IMG/VR virus record: IMGVR_UViG_3300023118_000010
Coordinates: 1 to 48,484 of that record
Direction: 5' to 3' (one strand)
Source: a virus
Length of the DNA stretch: 48,484 nucleotides
Part shown: positions 54-48,484 of the stretch, in pieces
Position numbering within the stretch: the first letter of the stretch is position 1
Layout of the letters: the number at the start of each line of letters is the position of its first letter
Translations under genes and position numbers: made by a program
The notes under the pieces: model-generated
Database searches by the model: none
Seen by the model: the letters and a program-made list of their open reading frames with translations, nothing else
Told to the model about the DNA's origin: nothing

Positions 54-126
54 GGGCCTCTAGCTCAGTTGGTAGAGCATCGGACTTTTAATCCGTGGGT
101 CGTCGGTTCGAGCCCGACGGGGCCCA
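54..126 (+). tRNA. tRNA-Lys (anticodon UUU)
   Basis: A full 73-nt cloverleaf can be folded: a 7-bp acceptor stem (54-60 with 119-125), a D arm, an anticodon loop CTTTTAA with anticodon TTT at 87-89, and a perfect 5-bp T stem (102-106 with 114-118) with a TTCGAGC loop. CCA is not encoded. The top pair of the anticodon stem (80/96) is a U-U mismatch. The gene is the prophage integration site: its 3' part from 89 onward is identical to 46709-46747, so the phage att sequence restores an intact tRNA at the left junction. The repressor gene on the other strand ends inside it. Confidence 0.97.
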
Positions 127-378
127 CTCGTCGTCATCTGACTCGAACAGAGCGTTGACCGAGACACCGAAGTAACGCGCGGCCGCGGCAATCTCCGCCG
201 CGAACCAGGGGCGTCGCCCCCGCAGCTTCAAGCTCAGCGAGGCCTGGGTCATACCCCACCGCGGCGCCAGAGCCGACTGGCTCTCCTGCGCACGCCACAT
301 GAGGCGGTGCACGTTCTCACCGATCACCTGGTCGGTGGTGCGCTCCGTGAAGACGGCGGCGCTCTGTTCGTTCGTCAT
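88..378 (-). CDS. XRE-family phage repressor, prophage form
   Basis: The 96-residue protein has a helix-turn-helix region at about residues 18-78 of the Cro/C1 XRE type, followed by an acidic SDDDE stretch. Its last 12 codons are read antisense from the tRNA/att core (ending ...NRRPTD). The stop TAA is bases 90-88, inside the anticodon-loop region. I chose the ATG at 378 rather than one at 402 because a promoter (TTGACG at 415-410, TAGCTT at 391-386, 18-bp spacer) places transcription start within a base or two of 378, which suggests a leaderless mRNA. It is divergent from the early operon and is the likely immunity repressor. In the circular phage the frame would stay open through attP (see 46549-46747), so this is the integration-truncated version. 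Confidence 0.85.
   Translation of the reverse strand: MTNEQSAAVFTERTTDQVIGENVHRLMWRAQESQSALAPRWGMTQASLSLKLRGRRPWFAAEIAAAARYFGVSVNALFESDDDEWAPSGSNRRPTD
89..127 (+). repeat. attL core (39 bp)
   Basis: This stretch is identical to 46709-46747. It covers the tRNA-Lys anticodon loop edge, variable region, T arm and acceptor 3' strand plus one base. The first difference on the left is base 88 (T here, A at 46708), and on the right base 128 (T) versus 46748 (C). Strand exchange must fall inside this interval. Base 88 belongs to the TAA that ends the prophage form of the repressor. Confidence 0.95.
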
Positions 379-505
379 GTACGACAAGCTACGACAGAAC
401 ACGACAAACCGTCAAGCCCTCCCCATTTGGGTCACATCCATTTCCCAGCGTCGTGGCGTGTCGGATATTGACAGTTCATAACGGAGCGTTGTAGCGTCCT
501 CACCT
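379..505. promoter_or_regulatory. Divergent repressor/early promoter region with operators
   Basis: Leftward promoter: TTGACG (415-410), 18 bp, TAGCTT (391-386), repressor ATG at 378. Rightward promoter: TTGACA (468-473), 18 bp, TAGCGT (492-497), early gene ATG at 506. In both cases the expected start of transcription coincides with the start codon and no ribosome binding site is seen, as in leaderless actinobacterial mRNAs. Three direct repeats of ACGACA at 381, 391 and 401 are spaced exactly 10 bp and overlap the leftward promoter. Related inverted copies (TGTCGG at 460, CGTCGT at 449) lie just before the rightward -35 box. These are candidate operators for the repressor and/or the product of the next gene. 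Confidence 0.65.
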
Positions 506-850
506 ATGACAGCCAGTAATAACCACAACGGTGTGATGACGCTCGACGAAGTTGCCGAGCTCCACCGCGTCAGCCGTCGCACGGTCGAACGCTGGGCTGC
601 CAACGGTGTACTCCCGGTTTCGAAGCTCCCCGGCGGCCAGGTCCGCGTCGAGGAGAAGGATGCACGCCGACTGCTCAAGCCCGTTACTTCCTCGTCCGCC
701 GGTTCCCGGGTGCTGTCACCGCCCGACGGGGTCGCCATCCCGGCCGTCGAGGAGCCCACCGGAACAACCCGGGGTGCCGCAATCACTCCCGAACCGGTGG
801 AAGGCGCCGCGGGAGCCCCCGCTCCCGCGGCGCATCCCTCACCCCAGTAA
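506..850 (+). CDS. MerR/excisionase-type HTH DNA-binding protein
   Basis: The 114-residue protein has an N-terminal winged-helix module of the MerR/excisionase type (residues 11-56: TLDEVAELHRVSRRTVERW, then GGQVRV and a basic helix), and a low-complexity Pro/Ala-rich tail. It is the first gene of the early operon, directly opposite the repressor. By position it could be a Cro-like regulator, an excisionase, or both. The promoter just upstream predicts a leaderless transcript starting at the ATG. The tail has no recognisable fold. Confidence 0.75.
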   Translation: MTASNNHNGVMTLDEVAELHRVSRRTVERWAANGVLPVSKLPGGQVRVEEKDARRLLKPVTSSSAGSRVLSPPDGVAIPAVEEPTGTTRGAAITPEPVEGAAGAPAPAAHPSPQ

Positions 851-1905: not shown

Positions 1906-2081
1906 CTCGCCGCATCGTCCGCGCGATCTTCTGGATCGCCATCATCACCTTCTTCGCGATCGCCGGCTCAGCCGCTGAACTGCAGAGCCCCGGCTGGATG
2001 TACTTCGTCCCGCCCGCTGCGATCATCGCCATCCTTCTCACAATCGCCCTGCTGCGACGTCAGACCATCGGCCCCCGCTGA
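1902..2081 (+). CDS. Two-helix membrane protein, 59 aa
   Basis: The ATG overlaps the preceding stop (ATGA) and the stop overlaps the next start (TGATG). Two hydrophobic segments are visible (residues 7-24 and 33-51) with basic ends, suggesting a small integral membrane protein. No family is recognised. Confidence 0.55.
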   Translation: MTRRIVRAIFWIAIITFFAIAGSAAELQSPGWMYFVPPAAIIAILLTIALLRRQTIGPR

Positions 2082-2818
2082 TGAACGCGGCTGCCGACGC
2101 ACCATTCACTTGCCCACCAGAGCACAAGCACGACCAGTCCCACACCTGCTACAACAACCACCGTTGCCGCTGCACCCCTTGCGGCAAACACGCTGCCGCT
2201 GAAGCCCTCCGACGTCGCCGCGAGAAGGTCATGGGTCGCTGGGAACAGGCCTGGTATCCGACGACCGGCGTCGCACGGAGATTGCAGGCCCTCGTCGCCA
2301 TCGGCTGGACAGCACCCGCGCTCGCCGTGGAAATGGATCTCACCGTCACGGCGATTCGCAGAATCCTCCACTTCACATTCGACAGCGTCGAGCGAGACAC
2401 CAGACACAAGGTTGTCACTGCGTACGACCGGCTCTGGAACATCCGCCCCACATGCGACACCGCCCACCACCGCGCAGCCCGCGATCGCGCCATCGCCCGC
2501 GCGCAGGGTTACGGCTGGCTTCCACCGCTGGCGTGGGATGACATCGATCTCGACCCAGAGCCTCCCGCCGTCGACCTCGACGAACGCACCGATTTCGACC
2601 ACGCGGTTGTCGCCCTGGCCCTTGCTGGCGAACGCATCACGCTGACCAAGGCGGAACGTCTCGCCGTCGTAGAGCAGCTCAACACCTGGCGCTACTCAGA
2701 CGAAGAGATCGCAAGCCGTCTCGGTTGCGACGTCCGCACGATTCTCCGCGATCGCTCGGAACACGGCATCCCCGCCGCCGTCGACGCCTCTCGTCAGCCC
2801 ACCCGCAGGGCTGCCTGA
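2081..2818 (+). CDS. Phage HTH protein with Cys-rich N-terminus
   Basis: The 245-residue protein has a Cys/His-rich N-terminus (four Cys between residues 11 and 35, plausible metal site), a central helical region starting ARRLQALVAIGW, and the short motif WDDIDLDPEP near residue 150. A C-terminal helix-turn-helix (YSDEEIASRLGCDVRTILRDR, about 209-229) resembles sigma-like DNA-binding helices. It shares the central region and the WxDIDxDP motif with the 451-residue protein at 3174, so the two are paralogues. A DNA-binding role is likely, but the target is unknown. Confidence 0.65.
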   Translation: MNAAADAPFTCPPEHKHDQSHTCYNNHRCRCTPCGKHAAAEALRRRREKVMGRWEQAWYPTTGVARRLQALVAIGWTAPALAVEMDLTVTAIRRILHFTFDSVERDTRHKVVTAYDRLWNIRPTCDTAHHRAARDRAIARAQGYGWLPPLAWDDIDLDPEPPAVDLDERTDFDHAVVALALAGERITLTKAERLAVVEQLNTWRYSDEEIASRLGCDVRTILRDRSEHGIPAAVDASRQPTRRAA

Positions 2819-3173: not shown

Positions 3174-4529
3174 ATGGCCAGAGCCAAAGTCCTACCGTCC
3201 GACCCCGCATTTCCGCACGGAACCTCGGGCGGTGTTGCTCGCGGATGCACCGACGAAGCAGCTTGCCCGGGCGACGAGAACGGGCGTACTTGCCGGCAGG
3301 CTAAGCGCGACTACGAGCGTGACTACCGGTCCAAGGCGGCCGGCGTGCCCTCCGATGGTGAGGCACCGGAAGGTGCTGCTTCGCCGGCGTTGAAGATGGC
3401 AGCGCCGACCACCGAGGGCTGGGAACCGATCGGCCATCTAGTACCAGATGAAGCCCCGGCGGCCATTGAGGGTAAGCAGGCGGCCGCCACACTCCAGGCG
3501 GAGCCCGCGCCGAAGCCGGCGCCGGCCAAGGTTGAAGGGCGTACCGCCGCGATTGGGGCAACACGACGCCTCCAGGCGCTCGCGTGGATGGGTTACACAC
3601 CCATCGAGCTGGCCCACCACACCCAGATCAGCGTCGACAACATCTGGTGCCTGCTGCTGTGCCCGCCCGACACCATCACCGACGTCACCCACCGAATCAT
3701 CCGCGACCGATTCCTGAAGTTGCGCGACCAGCCAAAGAACAAGAAGACCGGCGCTATCGGCTGGTCACACGCGAACGAGCGCATCATCATCCTCGCGGAA
3801 TCTCACGACTGGAAAGGCCCGTACGACTGGAACGACATCGACATCGATCCCAGCGCACCGAACGACTCCGGCCGCTCCCGCCGCGCCATGCTCGCAGACC
3901 AGGTAACCGCCCTCGAGGCCGAGCTCGTGTTCGCCCGGACCCGGATCTCCGAACTCGAGTCGGTCAACCCTGCCACCGGGACCGGATCTGACGGCGAGCA
4001 CGTCACCAAGCTCGAGGAAGAGATCACATCCTTGACGGAGGAGCTCTCCGATACGAAAGCCAAGTACAGCGAACTGCTCTCCAAGTCGCACGACGAGGCC
4101 GTGTCGATTGCGAGCAGGGCCGAAGCGAATCACCAGACCAAGGTCGCCGCGCTCGAGAGCACCATCCTCGATCTGCGCGAACGAGCTGCTCGACACGACC
4201 AGGGCGAGACCACCCGCACCGTGACACCTCACTCCGCGGCTGATCGCGCTACGGAACTCAACATCGCTCTCACCGACGCCGAGAACGAAGCGCTCCACTG
4301 GAAGCACCGCCACGACCAGGAAGCGGCTGCACGCGCACAAGCCGAGGACCGCCTCACCAAGATCTGGTTCCTTGCGACCCATACGGAGAGCTTTTCCAAC
4401 CCCGAGGCCGAGACCAGCGCCGAGCCCGAGGCCGACGATCAGCGACTCCGTTTGGTGGAGTCCCCGGTTGAAGACGGCTCCATCCATCTTCCCGCCGGCG
4501 TCACGGTCAACATCCACATCGGCAGGTAG
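3174..4529 (+). CDS. Large phage HTH protein with coiled coil
   Basis: A good ribosome binding site (AGGAG at 3163-3167) precedes the ATG. Residues 1-60 hold a Cys-containing segment like that of the actinophage-type protein at 2081 (CTDEAACPGDENGRTC). Residues 125-225 contain the shared region TRRLQALAWMGYTPIELA and the WNDIDIDPSAP motif. Residues 235-395 form long heptad-like helices rich in Glu, Leu and Lys, consistent with a coiled coil. It looks like the paralogue at 2081 with its C-terminal HTH replaced by a coiled coil, perhaps for multimerisation. Role is unknown; position suggests early regulation or DNA metabolism. Confidence 0.65.
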   Translation: MARAKVLPSDPAFPHGTSGGVARGCTDEAACPGDENGRTCRQAKRDYERDYRSKAAGVPSDGEAPEGAASPALKMAAPTTEGWEPIGHLVPDEAPAAIEGKQAAATLQAEPAPKPAPAKVEGRTAAIGATRRLQALAWMGYTPIELAHHTQISVDNIWCLLLCPPDTITDVTHRIIRDRFLKLRDQPKNKKTGAIGWSHANERIIILAESHDWKGPYDWNDIDIDPSAPNDSGRSRRAMLADQVTALEAELVFARTRISELESVNPATGTGSDGEHVTKLEEEITSLTEELSDTKAKYSELLSKSHDEAVSIASRAEANHQTKVAALESTILDLRERAARHDQGETTRTVTPHSAADRATELNIALTDAENEALHWKHRHDQEAAARAQAEDRLTKIWFLATHTESFSNPEAETSAEPEADDQRLRLVESPVEDGSIHLPAGVTVNIHIGR

Positions 4530-16465: not shown

Positions 16466-17155
16466 ATGAAGTCCGCTGACATCCTCGCCGCGATCCGTGC
16501 TGCCTACCCACGACAGGCCGTCGTGCACGAGGTCGTCATCCACGACCACCTCTGGGATGAGCGCGCCGCCGTCTCGAAGCCGATACGCCGCATCGACGCG
16601 CTGATGTTCGACTCGCTGCAACGAACCGCGATCGAGATCAAGGTGTCGAAGGCGGACCTGAAGCGGGACACCTGGCAGAAGCGAGCACCATGGGCGGCCG
16701 TCACTCACCGATTCGTCTACGTGATGCCGATCGAACTGTTCGAGTCGATCGACAACTGGGGTGCGCTGCACGCAGAGACCGGGTTCGACATCTACGGGTG
16801 CGGGGTCTGGACGGTGGACGATGCCGGCCGCGTGAAGGTCGCACGGAAGGCCGTAATCAACCGTCACCCGGAGCCGCTGCCGCAGCAGGTCATCCAGTCG
16901 CTCGCGTATCGAGCCGCGGGAGTGTCAGAGCAGCTCGCTGCCGCTCCGCCCGAGCCGGTCGAGATCCAGGTCGAGTTGCCGAACCTCACGGACGCCGGCC
17001 ATGTACGCCTCGAAAGCGGTCTTCCCAAGCTCCTGCACGGTGACACCCAACTCCGCAGCGACCTCACCGGCCTCCCGGGCGAGAGCGGCATCCACCTCGA
17101 ACCTGATCACATGCTCGGCCATGACCCGCAGCCTACCCACGGAGGCAACCGATGA
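16466..17155 (+). CDS. MmcB-like PD-(D/E)XK nuclease-fold protein
   Basis: Residues 1-150 match the MmcB/restriction-endonuclease-like pattern: a helix, RRIDALMF (catalytic Asp about residue 45), AIEIKVSKADLKRD (Glu-x-Lys at about 57-59), then a conserved Trp-Lys-Arg region and a strand VYVMPIELF. MmcB-type proteins are linked to DNA repair, and related domains are nucleases. The last 75 residues read poorly as a protein and overlap an open frame on the other strand (16925-17122) that looks more natural. Its ATG follows repeat copy 2 and CAGGAGAAC. Confidence 0.6.
   Translation: MKSADILAAIRAAYPRQAVVHEVVIHDHLWDERAAVSKPIRRIDALMFDSLQRTAIEIKVSKADLKRDTWQKRAPWAAVTHRFVYVMPIELFESIDNWGALHAETGFDIYGCGVWTVDDAGRVKVARKAVINRHPEPLPQQVIQSLAYRAAGVSEQLAAAPPEPVEIQVELPNLTDAGHVRLESGLPKLLHGDTQLRSDLTGLPGESGIHLEPDHMLGHDPQPTHGGNR
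16925..17122 (-). CDS. Possible antisense RHH-like small protein, 65 aa
   Basis: On the minus strand, fully inside the 3' end of the MmcB-like gene, a 65-codon frame starts at ATG 17122 (or GTG 17140). It encodes a typical small helical protein: a strand HVIRFEVD, then AALAREAGEVAAELG, VTVQELGKTAFEAYMAG. This resembles ribbon-helix-helix antitoxins in outline. Codons are as GC-rich as those of the plus frame, so composition does not decide. No promoter or ribosome binding site is obvious. It may be a shadow frame. Confidence 0.3.
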   Translation of the reverse strand: MAEHVIRFEVDAALAREAGEVAAELGVTVQELGKTAFEAYMAGVREVRQLDLDLDRLGRSGSELL

Positions 17156-44830: not shown

Positions 44831-45310
44831 ATGGCTCACGTAACCACCGGCTGCCGGGACTGCAAGAAGTGCACCAACAGCGGCGTAGCGAACCTGGGTC
44901 GCAACTCCGGCCGCGCCGGCGCCGCAGTGCTGACCCTCGGCCTCAGCGAAGCGGTTATGGCAGCCACAAAGAACTGCCGGATCTGCGGTCACAAGCTCTC
45001 GCTCCATTCCGGCGTCGACGAGGTCCTTGCGGCGCAGGACAGGCGAGCTGATCGGGCCGCCTCGAAGAACCCGCCAGCAGGCTGGTTCCCTGAGACCACC
45101 AGCCGGCGCACCCGCTGGTGGGACGGCATGGCGTGGGGCCCCTACAAGGAGGACTGGGACCGCGAGCAGGCGACCGCGCTCGCCGCGACCGCGCCGGCGG
45201 CCCCAGCTGGTGTCGCGGCCGAGCTGCAGCGGCTCGGTGAGATGCACTCCGCCGGCCTGCTCACCGAGGCCGAATTCGCCGCAGCAAAGACGTCCGTGCT
45301 CGGCCTCTAA
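44831..45310 (+). CDS. Zinc, DUF2510 and SHOCT domain protein
   Basis: Three modules can be read in 159 residues. An N-terminal Cys domain (CRDCKKC, then CRICGHKL) with a hydrophobic Gly/Ala stretch between. A DUF2510 motif at about 92-117 (AGWFPETTSRRTRWWDGMAWGP). A C-terminal SHOCT helix pair (AAELQRLGEMHSAGLLTEAEFAAAK). DUF2510 and SHOCT commonly occur in actinobacterial membrane-associated proteins. Its stop overlaps that of the convergent integrase gene. It is probably a lysogenic or accessory gene. Confidence 0.65.
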   Translation: MAHVTTGCRDCKKCTNSGVANLGRNSGRAGAAVLTLGLSEAVMAATKNCRICGHKLSLHSGVDEVLAAQDRRADRAASKNPPAGWFPETTSRRTRWWDGMAWGPYKEDWDREQATALAATAPAAPAGVAAELQRLGEMHSAGLLTEAEFAAAKTSVLGL

Positions 45311-46311
45311 GCGGCGTCGCGTTTCGGCCCTCGAGCGCCGCCCGCGTGAGCAACCTTCGTCACACGCGGCAACGCCTGGAGCGCAGCATCCCACTGGTCG
45401 TCGTCGAGCAGGGTGTAGATCTGCGTCGTCGCTACGGACTCGTGGCCCATCATGTCTTTGATCTGTAGCAGCGGCACTTTCGCCTTGGCGAGGTTCGTAC
45501 CGAAGGTGTGGCGTGTGGAGTGGCCGGTGAGGCGGCTGTCGTCAATGCCGGCAGCGTCGATGCGCCGGGCGAGCACGTCGCCCAGAGACTTCCCGAGGAT
45601 GTGTCCGCCGCCGTTCGGAAAGGCCTTGTTCTTGTACGGCGAGGGGAACCACCAGCCGCGACGCGGATACTGGCGCGCGAGCTCGAGGACCTCCGGGTGC
45701 AGCTTGAGGGTGTGCTCCTTGTTGCCCTTGCGAATCGAGGTGAGCGTCCCCGCCTCCCAGTCGATGTCTTCACCGCGGATCTTCACTACCTCGCTCACCC
45801 GAAGTCCCGTGTGCACGAGGATCAGAATCAGGTCCCGGGTGCGCTTGTACGATCCCGACTCCATGAGGGCGTCCACCTGGTCGGCGCGAAATGGTCGCGG
45901 CTTGCGCTTGGGCACCCTGATCGACTCGAGCGACTCCGCCGGGTCATCGGATCGGTAGCCGTTGACGCGCGCCCAGCGGAAGAATGTCCGCAGGTAGCTG
46001 CGGTTCGATTCCTTCGTCGACGGCAGGATCTCCCGTCCCGTGCGCGGATGCGCCCGGGTCAGGAACTGCAGTAGGTCGTCGTGCGTGATCTGCTCAATCG
46101 ACTTCCCTGTCTGAGCAGCGAGCAGCAGTATGCATTCCTCGCGATTGCGTATCGTCTTCCGGGCCATGTTCTTGGCCCGTTGGCTTGTGGCGTATGCCCC
46201 CATGATGAATCCCCATTCCATGGGGCCAGACTGTAGGCGAGTAACGCTCGCCCTATTTTCCGGTATACCGGTCCCCGGGAAGGGGATGACGTTACTCGAC
46301 CAGGAGTTCAT
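45307..46311 (-). CDS. Tyrosine integrase
   Basis: The 334-residue enzyme has all catalytic landmarks of tyrosine recombinases: Arg171 (HTGLRVSE), a Lys in the beta hairpin (near 195), His264-x-x-Arg267 (GHSTRHTFGT), GH at 289-290 and the nucleophile Tyr299 (TTQIYTLL). A core-binding SAM-like domain precedes (about 40-125). It catalyses exchange between attP and the tRNA-Lys attB. The start ATG at 46311 overlaps the upstream small gene by 20 bases. In the integrated state no promoter of its own is evident; in circular phage it would be the third gene after the repressor. Confidence 0.9.
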   Translation of the reverse strand: MNSWSSNVIPFPGTGIPENRASVTRLQSGPMEWGFIMGAYATSQRAKNMARKTIRNREECILLLAAQTGKSIEQITHDDLLQFLTRAHPRTGREILPSTKESNRSYLRTFFRWARVNGYRSDDPAESLESIRVPKRKPRPFRADQVDALMESGSYKRTRDLILILVHTGLRVSEVVKIRGEDIDWEAGTLTSIRKGNKEHTLKLHPEVLELARQYPRRGWWFPSPYKNKAFPNGGGHILGKSLGDVLARRIDAAGIDDSRLTGHSTRHTFGTNLAKAKVPLLQIKDMMGHESVATTQIYTLLDDDQWDAALQALPRVTKVAHAGGARGPKRDAA

Positions 46312-46549
46312 CGCGGCGCGCCCCCACACCTGAAGCCAGGGCCCGCCGGCGCCGAGACACGTCGTCGACGCCCGCCCGCAATGCGGCCCGGGCGCGATCG
46401 CGCGCCGCGCGGTAGCGACCGAGCTCTTCCTGGTGGAAGTGGCCACCGTCGACGATCTGATCTGCCAGAATCCGCGCGAGCCTGTCCCGCTCCTCAGCGG
46501 TCACCGGAACGGCATCTATCGCGGTGAGCGGACCCAGTTGCTCCGCCAT
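46292..46549 (-). CDS. Small charged protein between att site and integrase, 85 aa
   Basis: The product is helical and very rich in Arg, Ala and Glu (TAEERDRLARILADQIVDGG, EELGRYRAARDRARAALRAG). Its ATG shares its A with the TGA of the severed repressor 3' part (TGATG), and its end overlaps integrase by 20 bases. It is coupled to both. It might act with the integrase or as a small regulator. Not recognised. Confidence 0.6.
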   Translation of the reverse strand: MAEQLGPLTAIDAVPVTAEERDRLARILADQIVDGGHFHQEELGRYRAARDRARAALRAGVDDVSRRRRALASGVGARRDELLVE

Positions 46550-46747
46550 CAGATGACCTCGCGTTCGCCAAAGAGATCGACGATCGGCGCCATACCGGCG
46601 TGAACGCTGTGGCGCTTCACGATGCCATGCAGCGGTGTGATCGGCGCGACATGGTCGTCCTCATGTGCGGACGCGAGGCGCTCTCCTATGGCCGAAACGT
46701 CGCCCTTATAATCCGTGGGTCGTCGGTTCGAGCCCGACGGGGCCCAC
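46549..46747 (-). other. Severed 3' part of the phage-form repressor gene
   Basis: Joining the two att copies as in circular phage, the repressor frame passes the core without stopping: the prophage TAA (90-88) becomes TAT (46710-46708). It continues for 53 codons (YKGDVSAIGERL ... IVDLFGEREVI) to TGA at 46551-46549, which overlaps the next gene start. About 74 percent of these codons end in G or C, as in neighbouring genes. In the prophage the frame upstream of attR is closed by TAG at 46770-46768 without a start codon. The phage-form repressor would be 149 residues. Confidence 0.7.
46709..46747 (+). repeat. attR core (39 bp)
   Basis: This is identical to 89-127. The 5' half of a tRNA is missing to its left, so it is not a second tRNA gene. 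To the right follows host DNA that would naturally continue from tRNA-Lys. Confidence 0.95.
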
Positions 46748-47424: not shown

Positions 47425-47437
47425 CATTGACTCAATG
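47425..47437. promoter_or_regulatory. Probable ArsR operator at the start codon
   Basis: CATTGACTCAATG is a perfect 13-bp palindrome covering the ATG of the ArsR-like gene at 47435. TTGACG (47399-47404) lies upstream as a possible -35. A dyad at the start of its own gene is the usual place for ArsR autoregulation. Confidence 0.55.
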
Positions 47438-48121
47438 TCTACTGACCACAATGACGAGCTGATGGCGAGGGCCGCGAAGCACGCGGCCCTCGCCGATCCC
47501 ACCCGCCTGGCGATCGTGGACCTGCTCGACCTCGGCGATCTGACCTCGACAGAGGTGGGCAGAATTCTCGGGGTTCCGTCGAACCTCCTCTCCCACCACC
47601 TGAGCGTGCTGGAAGGCGAAGGCATGCTGTCCCGCAGCCGCTCCGAGGCGGACCGTCGGCGCAACTACCTGCACCTCCTCCGCCCGACCGTCGACGGCAT
47701 CTATGTGAGCCGTACCCGGGCGGTCACCCGGGTTGTCTTCGTCTGCACGGCAAACTCCGCGCGCTCCCAGATCGCGGCCGCGCTCTGGCGTCGCAACAGC
47801 GACATCCCGGCGGAATCCGCGGGGACTCATCCCGCCGTACAGATCGCGGCAGGTGCGAACGACACTGCAGCGCGGCACGGCACCCCACTCGCATCCACCC
47901 GCCCACGACAGCTCACCGACGTGCTCGCCGACACCGATTTCGTGGTCACCGTGTGTGACAACGCACACGAGGAACTCGCCGACGTCGGCGACCTGCACTG
48001 GTCGGTGCCCGACCCGATCAGAGTGGGCACCCCCGAAGCATTCGACGCCGCCTACGACGAACTCTCCCAGCGCGTGAGCGACCTCGCGCCGCATCTCGTC
48101 CCCCTCGAACCGATCGGATAG
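47435..48121 (+). CDS. ArsR-type regulator fused to arsenate reductase-like phosphatase domain
   Basis: Residues 12-85 are an ArsR/SmtB winged helix (KHAALADPTRLAIVDLLDLGDLTSTEVGRILGVPSNLLSHHLSVLE). Residues 98-225 form a low-molecular-weight phosphatase fold: VVFVCTANSAR with the CX5R loop (Cys104, Arg110), ESAGTHP, and SVPDP carrying the general-acid Asp. The active-site loop is intact, so this part may reduce arsenate or bind it. The As-sensing Cys pair usual in ArsR is not evident. The gene is followed by arsC, which points to arsenic resistance. Confidence 0.85.
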   Translation: MSTDHNDELMARAAKHAALADPTRLAIVDLLDLGDLTSTEVGRILGVPSNLLSHHLSVLEGEGMLSRSRSEADRRRNYLHLLRPTVDGIYVSRTRAVTRVVFVCTANSARSQIAAALWRRNSDIPAESAGTHPAVQIAAGANDTAARHGTPLASTRPRQLTDVLADTDFVVTVCDNAHEELADVGDLHWSVPDPIRVGTPEAFDAAYDELSQRVSDLAPHLVPLEPIG

Positions 48122-48127
48122 CCCACC

Positions 48128-48484
48128 ATGACCGCTCCCACCGTTCTCTTCGTCTGCATCCACAATGCAGGCCGCTCCCAGATGGCCGCCGGCTACATGA
48201 CCGCTCTCTCCGGTGGTGCCGTCGAGGTGCGCTCCGGAGGGTCGGAGCCCGGCGACCAGATCAACCCGATCGCGATCCAGGCGATGGCCGAAGAGGGGAT
48301 CGACATCTCGCGGGCGGTTCCCCAGCTGATGACGACCGAGCAGGTGCGGGAGTCCGACGTGGTCATCACGATGGGCTGTGGGGATGTCTGCCCGATCTTT
48401 CCGGGCAAGCGTTACGAGGACTGGGAGCTGGCCGACCCGGCCGGCAAGAGCATCGATGAGGTGCGCCCCATCCGCGACGACATC
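48128..48484 (+). CDS. arsC: Arsenate reductase ArsC, cut by the window edge
   Basis: The visible 119 residues are a low-molecular-weight phosphatase-type arsenate reductase: VLFVCIHNAGRSQMAAGY with Cys10 and Arg16 (CX5R), VRSGGSEPGDQINP, and MGCGDVCP, a second Cys pair expected in the reduction cycle. It reduces arsenate to arsenite for export. It lies six bases after the ArsR-like gene and is probably in one operon with it. The 3' end lies beyond the window. Confidence 0.88.
   Translation, partial: MTAPTVLFVCIHNAGRSQMAAGYMTALSGGAVEVRSGGSEPGDQINPIAIQAMAEEGIDISRAVPQLMTTEQVRESDVVITMGCGDVCPIFPGKRYEDWELADPAGKSIDEVRPIRDDI

What the first reader, a model, noticed from the sequence alone, without database searches (positions are those of the whole stretch)
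88..378. Integration changes the C-terminus of the phage repressor
The repressor frame runs into the att core on the minus strand. In the prophage a TAA made from tRNA bases 90-88 ends it at 96 residues. In the circular phage the equivalent codon is TAT (one base differs at the core edge, T88 versus A46708), and the frame stays open for 53 more codons. The viral and integrated proteins would therefore differ. This is the logic of the integration-dependent immunity known from mycobacteriophages such as BPs and Brujita, where only the shortened, integrated form is stable. Here the integrase is not the immediate neighbour in the prophage and the tail has no obvious ssrA-like end, so it may be a separate invention.
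Basis: partly seen in the sequence, partly recalled or inferred. Interest (0 to 1): 0.92.

Follow-up and report, generated by a model that had tools for sequence, protein, structure and literature searches.

The report
Phage repressor shortened by chromosomal integration
When this actinobacterial virus inserts itself into its host's lysine tRNA gene, the insertion cuts a 53-residue tail off the protein that keeps the virus dormant; this is a new member of a published phage switch, integration-dependent immunity, which turns out to be common in Microbacterium-family prophages.

Summary
A 39-bp core (89-127 = 46709-46747) flanks an intact siphophage prophage in tRNA-Lys(TTT). The minus-strand repressor ends at TAA (90-88) as 96 aa. 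In silico attP gives TAT and 149 aa. An open frame alone is weak evidence (about 19% by chance). But the long form's stop overlaps the next start (TGATG), and only the predicted frame resembles the viral-only tails of 17 relatives (score 395; shuffles 283±17, max 338).
This is integration-dependent immunity of the BPs/Brujita/Charlie type. In the circular phage the order is rep-attP-ORF85-int on one strand, as in Gordonia phage Hedwig. The integrase is short and ends in -AA. Charlie integrase is among its closest phage relatives. The first host base making the stop, a gene between rep and int, and no -AA tag on the repressor are all published for other members, so 'separate invention' is not needed.
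A survey found 25 prophage repressors in Microbacterium and its family ending in the anticodon region of antisense tRNAs of seven kinds. Viral-only tails share a short motif besides -AA. Four relatives appear to combine this switch with tRNA-dependent lysogeny. Instability of the long form is inferred, not shown.

The parts
54..127 (+). host tRNA-Lys(TTT), rebuilt at attL
   Evidence: ARAGORN; Rfam tRNA 68.5 bits
89..127 (.). attL common core, 39 bp, identical to 46709-46747
88..378 (-). repressor, prophage form, 96 aa; its TAA stop is antisense to anticodon-loop bases 88-90, with base 88 coming from the host
   Evidence: Pfam BetR 2e-5, PHROG 4583/2328 transcriptional repressor
381..406 (+). 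three ACGACA repeats at 10-bp period just upstream of the repressor start; candidate operator
   Evidence: 1 match, 0 expected in shuffles
506..850 (+). divergent excisionase/BldC-type HTH protein in the Cro/Xis position
   Evidence: PHROG 66 excisionase and regulator; TIGR01764 excise
46709..46747 (.). attR common core
46549..46708 (-). viral-only 3' end of the repressor frame (53 codons including TAT, then TGA 46551-46549); detached from the repressor in the prophage
46624..46650 (-). first copy of tail motif, VAPITPLHG
46567..46593 (-). second copy of tail motif, MAPIVDLFG, aligned with tails of G177 (LAPIVNLFA) and G483 (AIVVDLFGG)
46292..46549 (-). ORF85 between rep and int; start overlaps the long repressor's stop (TGATG); no known family
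45307..46221 (-). tyrosine integrase, 304 aa, SAM-like plus catalytic domains only, ends ...GPKRDAA
   Evidence: Pfam; PHROG 1; alignment

Best explanation
An integration-dependent immunity switch. In the incoming circular phage, rep-ORF85-int lie in one direction, and rep is read through the att core into a 53-residue tail, giving a 149-aa repressor that is expected to be inactive or short-lived because of that tail. If integrase recombines attP with attB in tRNA-Lys(TTT), the tail (and ORF85-int) moves 46.6 kb away to attR, the first host base turns TAT into TAA, the tRNA is rebuilt, and the 96-aa repressor is made and holds the prophage silent. Shown here by sequence: the two frames, tRNA rebuilding, operon order, homology of the tail, and recurrence in relatives. 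Inferred from BPs-type systems: co-transcription, instability of the long form, activity of the short form, and limitation of integrase by its -AA end.
For: Core and frames. TGATG coupling of long rep to ORF85. Only the predicted frame matches relatives' tails. Charlie-type integrase with -AA end. 25 homologous prophage repressors in Microbacterium and its family end in the anticodon region of antisense tRNAs Lys-TTT, Lys-CTT, Val, Asn, Met, Arg, Thr. 14 prophages with both cores and an integrase downstream rebuild a long form. Virion genomes of Charlie, Dogfish, Bunker, Hedwig, Brujita and others carry the contiguous long form with antisense-tRNA residues inside it.
Against: No virion or circular sequence of this phage. 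The long form ends EREVI, not -AA, so the known degron is not visible. Openness of the tail alone could be chance (19%). No experiment here on stability or immunity.
Confidence: 0.88

Rival explanations
1. Same anatomy, but the tail inactivates the repressor by another route than proteolysis by the ssrA pathway, for example by blocking oligomerisation or recruiting an adaptor through the conserved [ASG][PEQV][VIL][ITVR]x[LVI] motif.
For: No -AA end in the window. Motif shared by tails of otherwise different repressors, including Brujita (likelihood 110-126 against 84+/-4, max 94 in shuffles). Two motif copies in the window tail.
Against: In BPs both forms bind DNA similarly and the long form is degraded (PMC4557955). 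Most relatives end in a small residue or -AA. Some motif sharing is plain homology.
Confidence: 0.2
2. attP sits in the end of the repressor gene by accident of tRNA targeting; both forms are stable and active, and immunity is lambda-like and independent of integration.
For: Openness of the tail by chance is about 19%; the short form retains the whole HTH region.
Against: The arrangement recurs in many independent prophages with different tRNAs and frames, always with a stop at or next to the crossover, and the tails are conserved as protein.
Confidence: 0.07
3. The viral long form is an artefact: the real attP differs, and the frame beyond the core is not translated.
For: attP is reconstructed, not sequenced; pattern not found in IMG/VR.
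Against: Relatives' virion genomes contain the contiguous long form. TGATG overlap. Tail homology in that frame only. GC at codon position 3 is 0.75.
Confidence: 0.04

Closest known systems
Mycobacteriophage BPs gp33/gp32 integration-dependent immunity (PMC4557955, PMC9262239)
   Same: attP in rep; rep and int in the same direction; first host base converts the third position of a codon to a stop; tRNA rebuilt; divergent Cro-like gene
   Different: tRNA-Arg there, tRNA-Lys here; 33-residue tail there, 53 here; ORF85 between rep and int here
Mycobacterium phage Charlie gp35/gp34 (Cluster N)
   Same: Same antisense frame through the att core (GSNQRPADYQ vs GSNRRPTDYK) and related integrase (35% aa identity)
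   Different: Charlie tail is about 21 aa and ends -SAA; int directly follows rep
Gordonia phages Hedwig, RayTheFireFly, Bunker, GMA5 (PMC5559632)
   Same: rep, small ORF, then int, as in the window; GMA5 also targets tRNA-Lys
   Different: Hedwig, RayTheFireFly and Bunker viral repressors end -AA; their small ORFs are not similar to ORF85
M. abscessus prophages MabC/MabN/MabO/MabH (PMC8092301)
   Same: Integration-dependent immunity without an -AA tag on the viral repressor; in some prophages of that paper int is separated from rep by genes; in MabC/N/O the stop forms with the first bacterial base
   Different: Different host; integrases there lack -AA, the one here has it
Bifidobacterium prophages Bb423phi2/689b-1 (PMC6109161)
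   Same: Viral repressor reconstructed in silico from attL and attR
   Different: tRNA-Met, 18-residue tail with ssrA-like end, small genomes

Membership tests
Integration-dependent immunity system | attP common core lies inside the repressor frame | tested here: met
   In silico attP, 149-aa frame through the core
Integration-dependent immunity system | Integration truncates the repressor at a stop at or near the bacterial junction | tested here: met
   TAT to TAA by host base 88
Integration-dependent immunity system | attB in a host tRNA gene whose 3' part is rebuilt by the core | tested here: met
   tRNA-Lys 54-127, core to base 127
Integration-dependent immunity system | rep and int in one direction, int downstream of attP, in the viral genome | tested here: met
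   rep, ORF85 and int all minus strand, TGATG overlap; co-transcription not tested
Integration-dependent immunity system | Divergent Cro/Xis-like HTH gene next to rep | tested here: met
   506-850
Integration-dependent immunity system | Short tyrosine integrase without an arm-binding domain | tested here: met
   304 aa, SAM-like and catalytic domains only
Integration-dependent immunity system | -AA (ssrA-like) end on integrase (frequent, not defining) | tested here: met
   ...GPKRDAA
Integration-dependent immunity system | -AA (ssrA-like) end on viral repressor (frequent, not defining: absent in published MabC, MabN, MabO, MabH, PMC8092301) | tested here: not met
   ends EREVI
Integration-dependent immunity system | Only the short form is stable and confers immunity | not testable with these tools
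   needs expression and plaque assays
tRNA-dependent lysogeny (PMC10865867) | Short core that destroys the tRNA, and a phage tRNA of the same isotype | tested here: not met
   39-bp core rebuilds the tRNA; only one tRNA in the window

The most novel reading that the evidence does not exclude
The disposable viral tails of these repressors carry a second, so far undescribed inactivation signal, the short hydrophobic motif [ASG][PEQV][VIL][ITVR]x[LVI]. It works with or instead of the -AA degron and is present twice in this phage, explaining how the long form is shut off without an ssrA-like end.
Probability: 0.3. Interest if true: 0.6.

Novelty: new member of a known kind. Interest (0 to 1): 0.42.

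Why it matters
It moves the integration-dependent switch into the Microbacteriaceae, where it looks like a common lysogeny design (25 loci, seven tRNA species), with no published account found there in the held papers. The collection of reconstructed viral tails makes the open question of how tag-less long repressors are inactivated directly testable, and the four relatives that also carry a replacement tRNA link two unusual lysogeny systems in one phage.

Tried and rejected
Chance opening of the tail: not excluded by length alone (19%), rejected by homology in the predicted frame. Separate invention: rejected, see first-reader verdict. tRNA-dependent lysogeny for the window: rejected, tRNA rebuilt and no phage tRNA. 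ORF85 homology to Hedwig 42, RayTheFireFly 46, Bunker 37 or relatives' small ORFs: none. Searches for the whole 149-aa protein, ORF85 and the attP junction in IMG/VR found nothing. Plasmids: no repressor match. Host flank search to name the host hit only the tRNA. The 15-kb Arthrobacter phages of the Maggie/Toulouse type share the HTH, but the Toulouse repressor stops before any att core and has no neighbouring int. G700 left out of tail statistics: no integrase beside the second core. BPs and Halo records and the Broussard 2013 paper were not held.

Full report
Observation. The window holds an intact siphophage prophage (terminase 20970, portal 22887, protease 24306, tape measure 30927) between two exact 39-bp copies of the 3' half of tRNA-Lys(TTT): 89-127 and 46709-46747. 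The repressor on the minus strand (378->88) is a small HTH protein (Pfam BetR, PHROG 4583 and 2328). In the prophage it ends ...WAPSGSNRRPTD and stops at TAA, antisense to bases 88-90 of the tRNA, two of which belong to the anticodon 87-89. Base 88 is the first host base outside the core. In the reconstructed attP it is replaced by A46708, giving TAT; the frame then runs 52 more codons to TGA at 46551-46549.

Is the extension real? Length alone is weak: in sequence simulated from the arm's composition 19% of cases stay open that long. Three things make it real. The stop overlaps the ATG of ORF85 (TGATG), a form of translational coupling. The extension begins like those of relatives in the same tRNA (KGDVS; L010 QGDVS, G489 KSDVS) and ends like those of relatives in other tRNAs (MAPIVDLFGERE; G177 LAPIVNLFAGRE; G483 AIVVDLFGGR). 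Over 17 relatives the summed alignment score is 395 against 283±17 (max 338) in 500 shuffles, and none of the other five frames of the same DNA exceeds 287.

Architecture. In the circular phage the order on the minus strand is rep - attP - ORF85 - int, with a divergent excisionase/BldC-type HTH gene (506-850) on the other side of a 127-bp control region that carries three ACGACA repeats at 10-bp spacing. The integrase is 304 aa, has only SAM-like and catalytic domains, ends in RDAA, and has Charlie and other related mycobacteriophage integrases among its closest phage relatives. Integration moves ORF85 and int to attR, away from the repressor promoter. The remark that int is not the neighbour in the prophage therefore holds for any system of this design. 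Hedwig, RayTheFireFly and Bunker (virion genomes) have the same rep - small ORF - int order, and GMA5 is published with such an extra ORF and a tRNA-Lys site (PMC5559632).

Recurrence. A profile of the HTH region was run through 367 genomes of the genus of Microbacterium sp. BR1 and 400 of its family, after a first search with the window protein. Counting distinct loci with an antisense tRNA found by ARAGORN at the frame's 3' end, 25 repressors end in the anticodon region of tRNA-Lys(TTT), Lys(CTT), Val(TAC), Asn(GTT), Met(CAT), Arg(ACG) or Thr(CGT). One locus (L092) is cut by its contig end at the same place, and two more (G042, G047) end in a tRNA-Arg(TCT) that the insertion has broken. For 14 prophages (15-47 kb) with an integrase downstream the other core was found, and rebuilding attP gave forms 14-38 residues longer. 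In the 20 prophages compared, the frame used has its stop at the crossover, while the other two frames run on, mostly 5 or more codons. Long forms are also seen directly, as contiguous genes with antisense-tRNA-like residues inside, in the virion genomes of Charlie, Brujita, Dogfish, Bunker, Hedwig, Pipp, IdentityCrisis and Rem711. The host tRNA-Lys itself is found uninterrupted across the crossover in most genomes of the genus.

The tail. Of 17 reconstructed tails from these relatives (the 14 above plus L008, L009, L010), five end in -AA, thirteen in A, S or C, four in R, M or L; the window ends in I. Thirteen of 17 integrases end in -AA, as does the window's (L008-L010). So the integrase tag is conserved and the repressor tag is not. 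Published M. abscessus members also lack it (PMC8092301). An unsupervised motif search on 23 tails found a shared 8-residue motif, roughly [ASG][PEQV][VIL][ITVR]x[LVI][DAF] (likelihood 110-126 against 84±4, max 94, in 24 shuffled sets), including Brujita APVIPLRQ and two copies in the window (APITPLHG, APIVDLFG). Part of this is homology between related tails. Its role is unknown; that it helps inactivate the long form is inference.

Mechanism. Best reading: integration-dependent immunity as in BPs (PMC4557955, PMC9262239). Infection makes an inactive or short-lived 149-aa repressor; integration makes the stable 96-aa form; integrase abundance, limited by its own -AA end, sets the lysogeny frequency. 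Steps shown: both frames, tRNA rebuilding, gene order, homology, recurrence. Steps inferred: co-transcription, instability of the long form, activity of the short form.

Verdict. A well-supported new member of a known system in a host family for which I found no published account, with an unusually long, tag-less tail. Not a separate invention.

Noticed in passing
L008/G003, L009/G004 (tRNA-Lys-TTT); G042, G047 (tRNA-Arg-TCT): Prophages in which the frame ends GGAT|TAA, GGAT|TAG or AGAT|TAG at a core of about 6-8 bp that leaves the host tRNA broken, with a phage tRNA of the same anticodon after int. They appear to combine integration-dependent immunity with tRNA-dependent lysogeny; no paper found joining the two in one phage.
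   Followed up: partly
L012, L013 (IMG/VR prophages): tRNA-Lys(TTT) gene starting 1-2 bases after the int stop codon; the one in L012 carries an encoded CCA end.
   Followed up: partly
L027 and L085: Repressor-like frames that run into a tRNA in the sense orientation rather than antisense.
   Followed up: no
window 16586-16673: 88-bp stretch 85-88% identical to several mycobacteriophages (annotated DNA repair or hypothetical protein), while the rest of the first 25 kb has no such match.
   Followed up: no
window 2081-2818 and 3174-4529: Two neighbouring proteins that both match PHROG 1590 (unknown function), suggesting a duplication.
   Followed up: no
window 88-127: Repressor transcription would run antisense into tRNA-Lys in the lysogen; no terminator-like site was found there.
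   Followed up: no
L025 (G283:C49:48060-48571): Two homologous repressor-like genes in tandem, neither ending in a tRNA.
   Followed up: no
window 47435-48484: Host flank carries a fused ArsR/phosphatase-type gene, similar to annotated ArsR-family fusions on actinobacterial plasmids, and a second reductase-like gene, so the prophage may sit beside arsenic-resistance genes.
   Followed up: no
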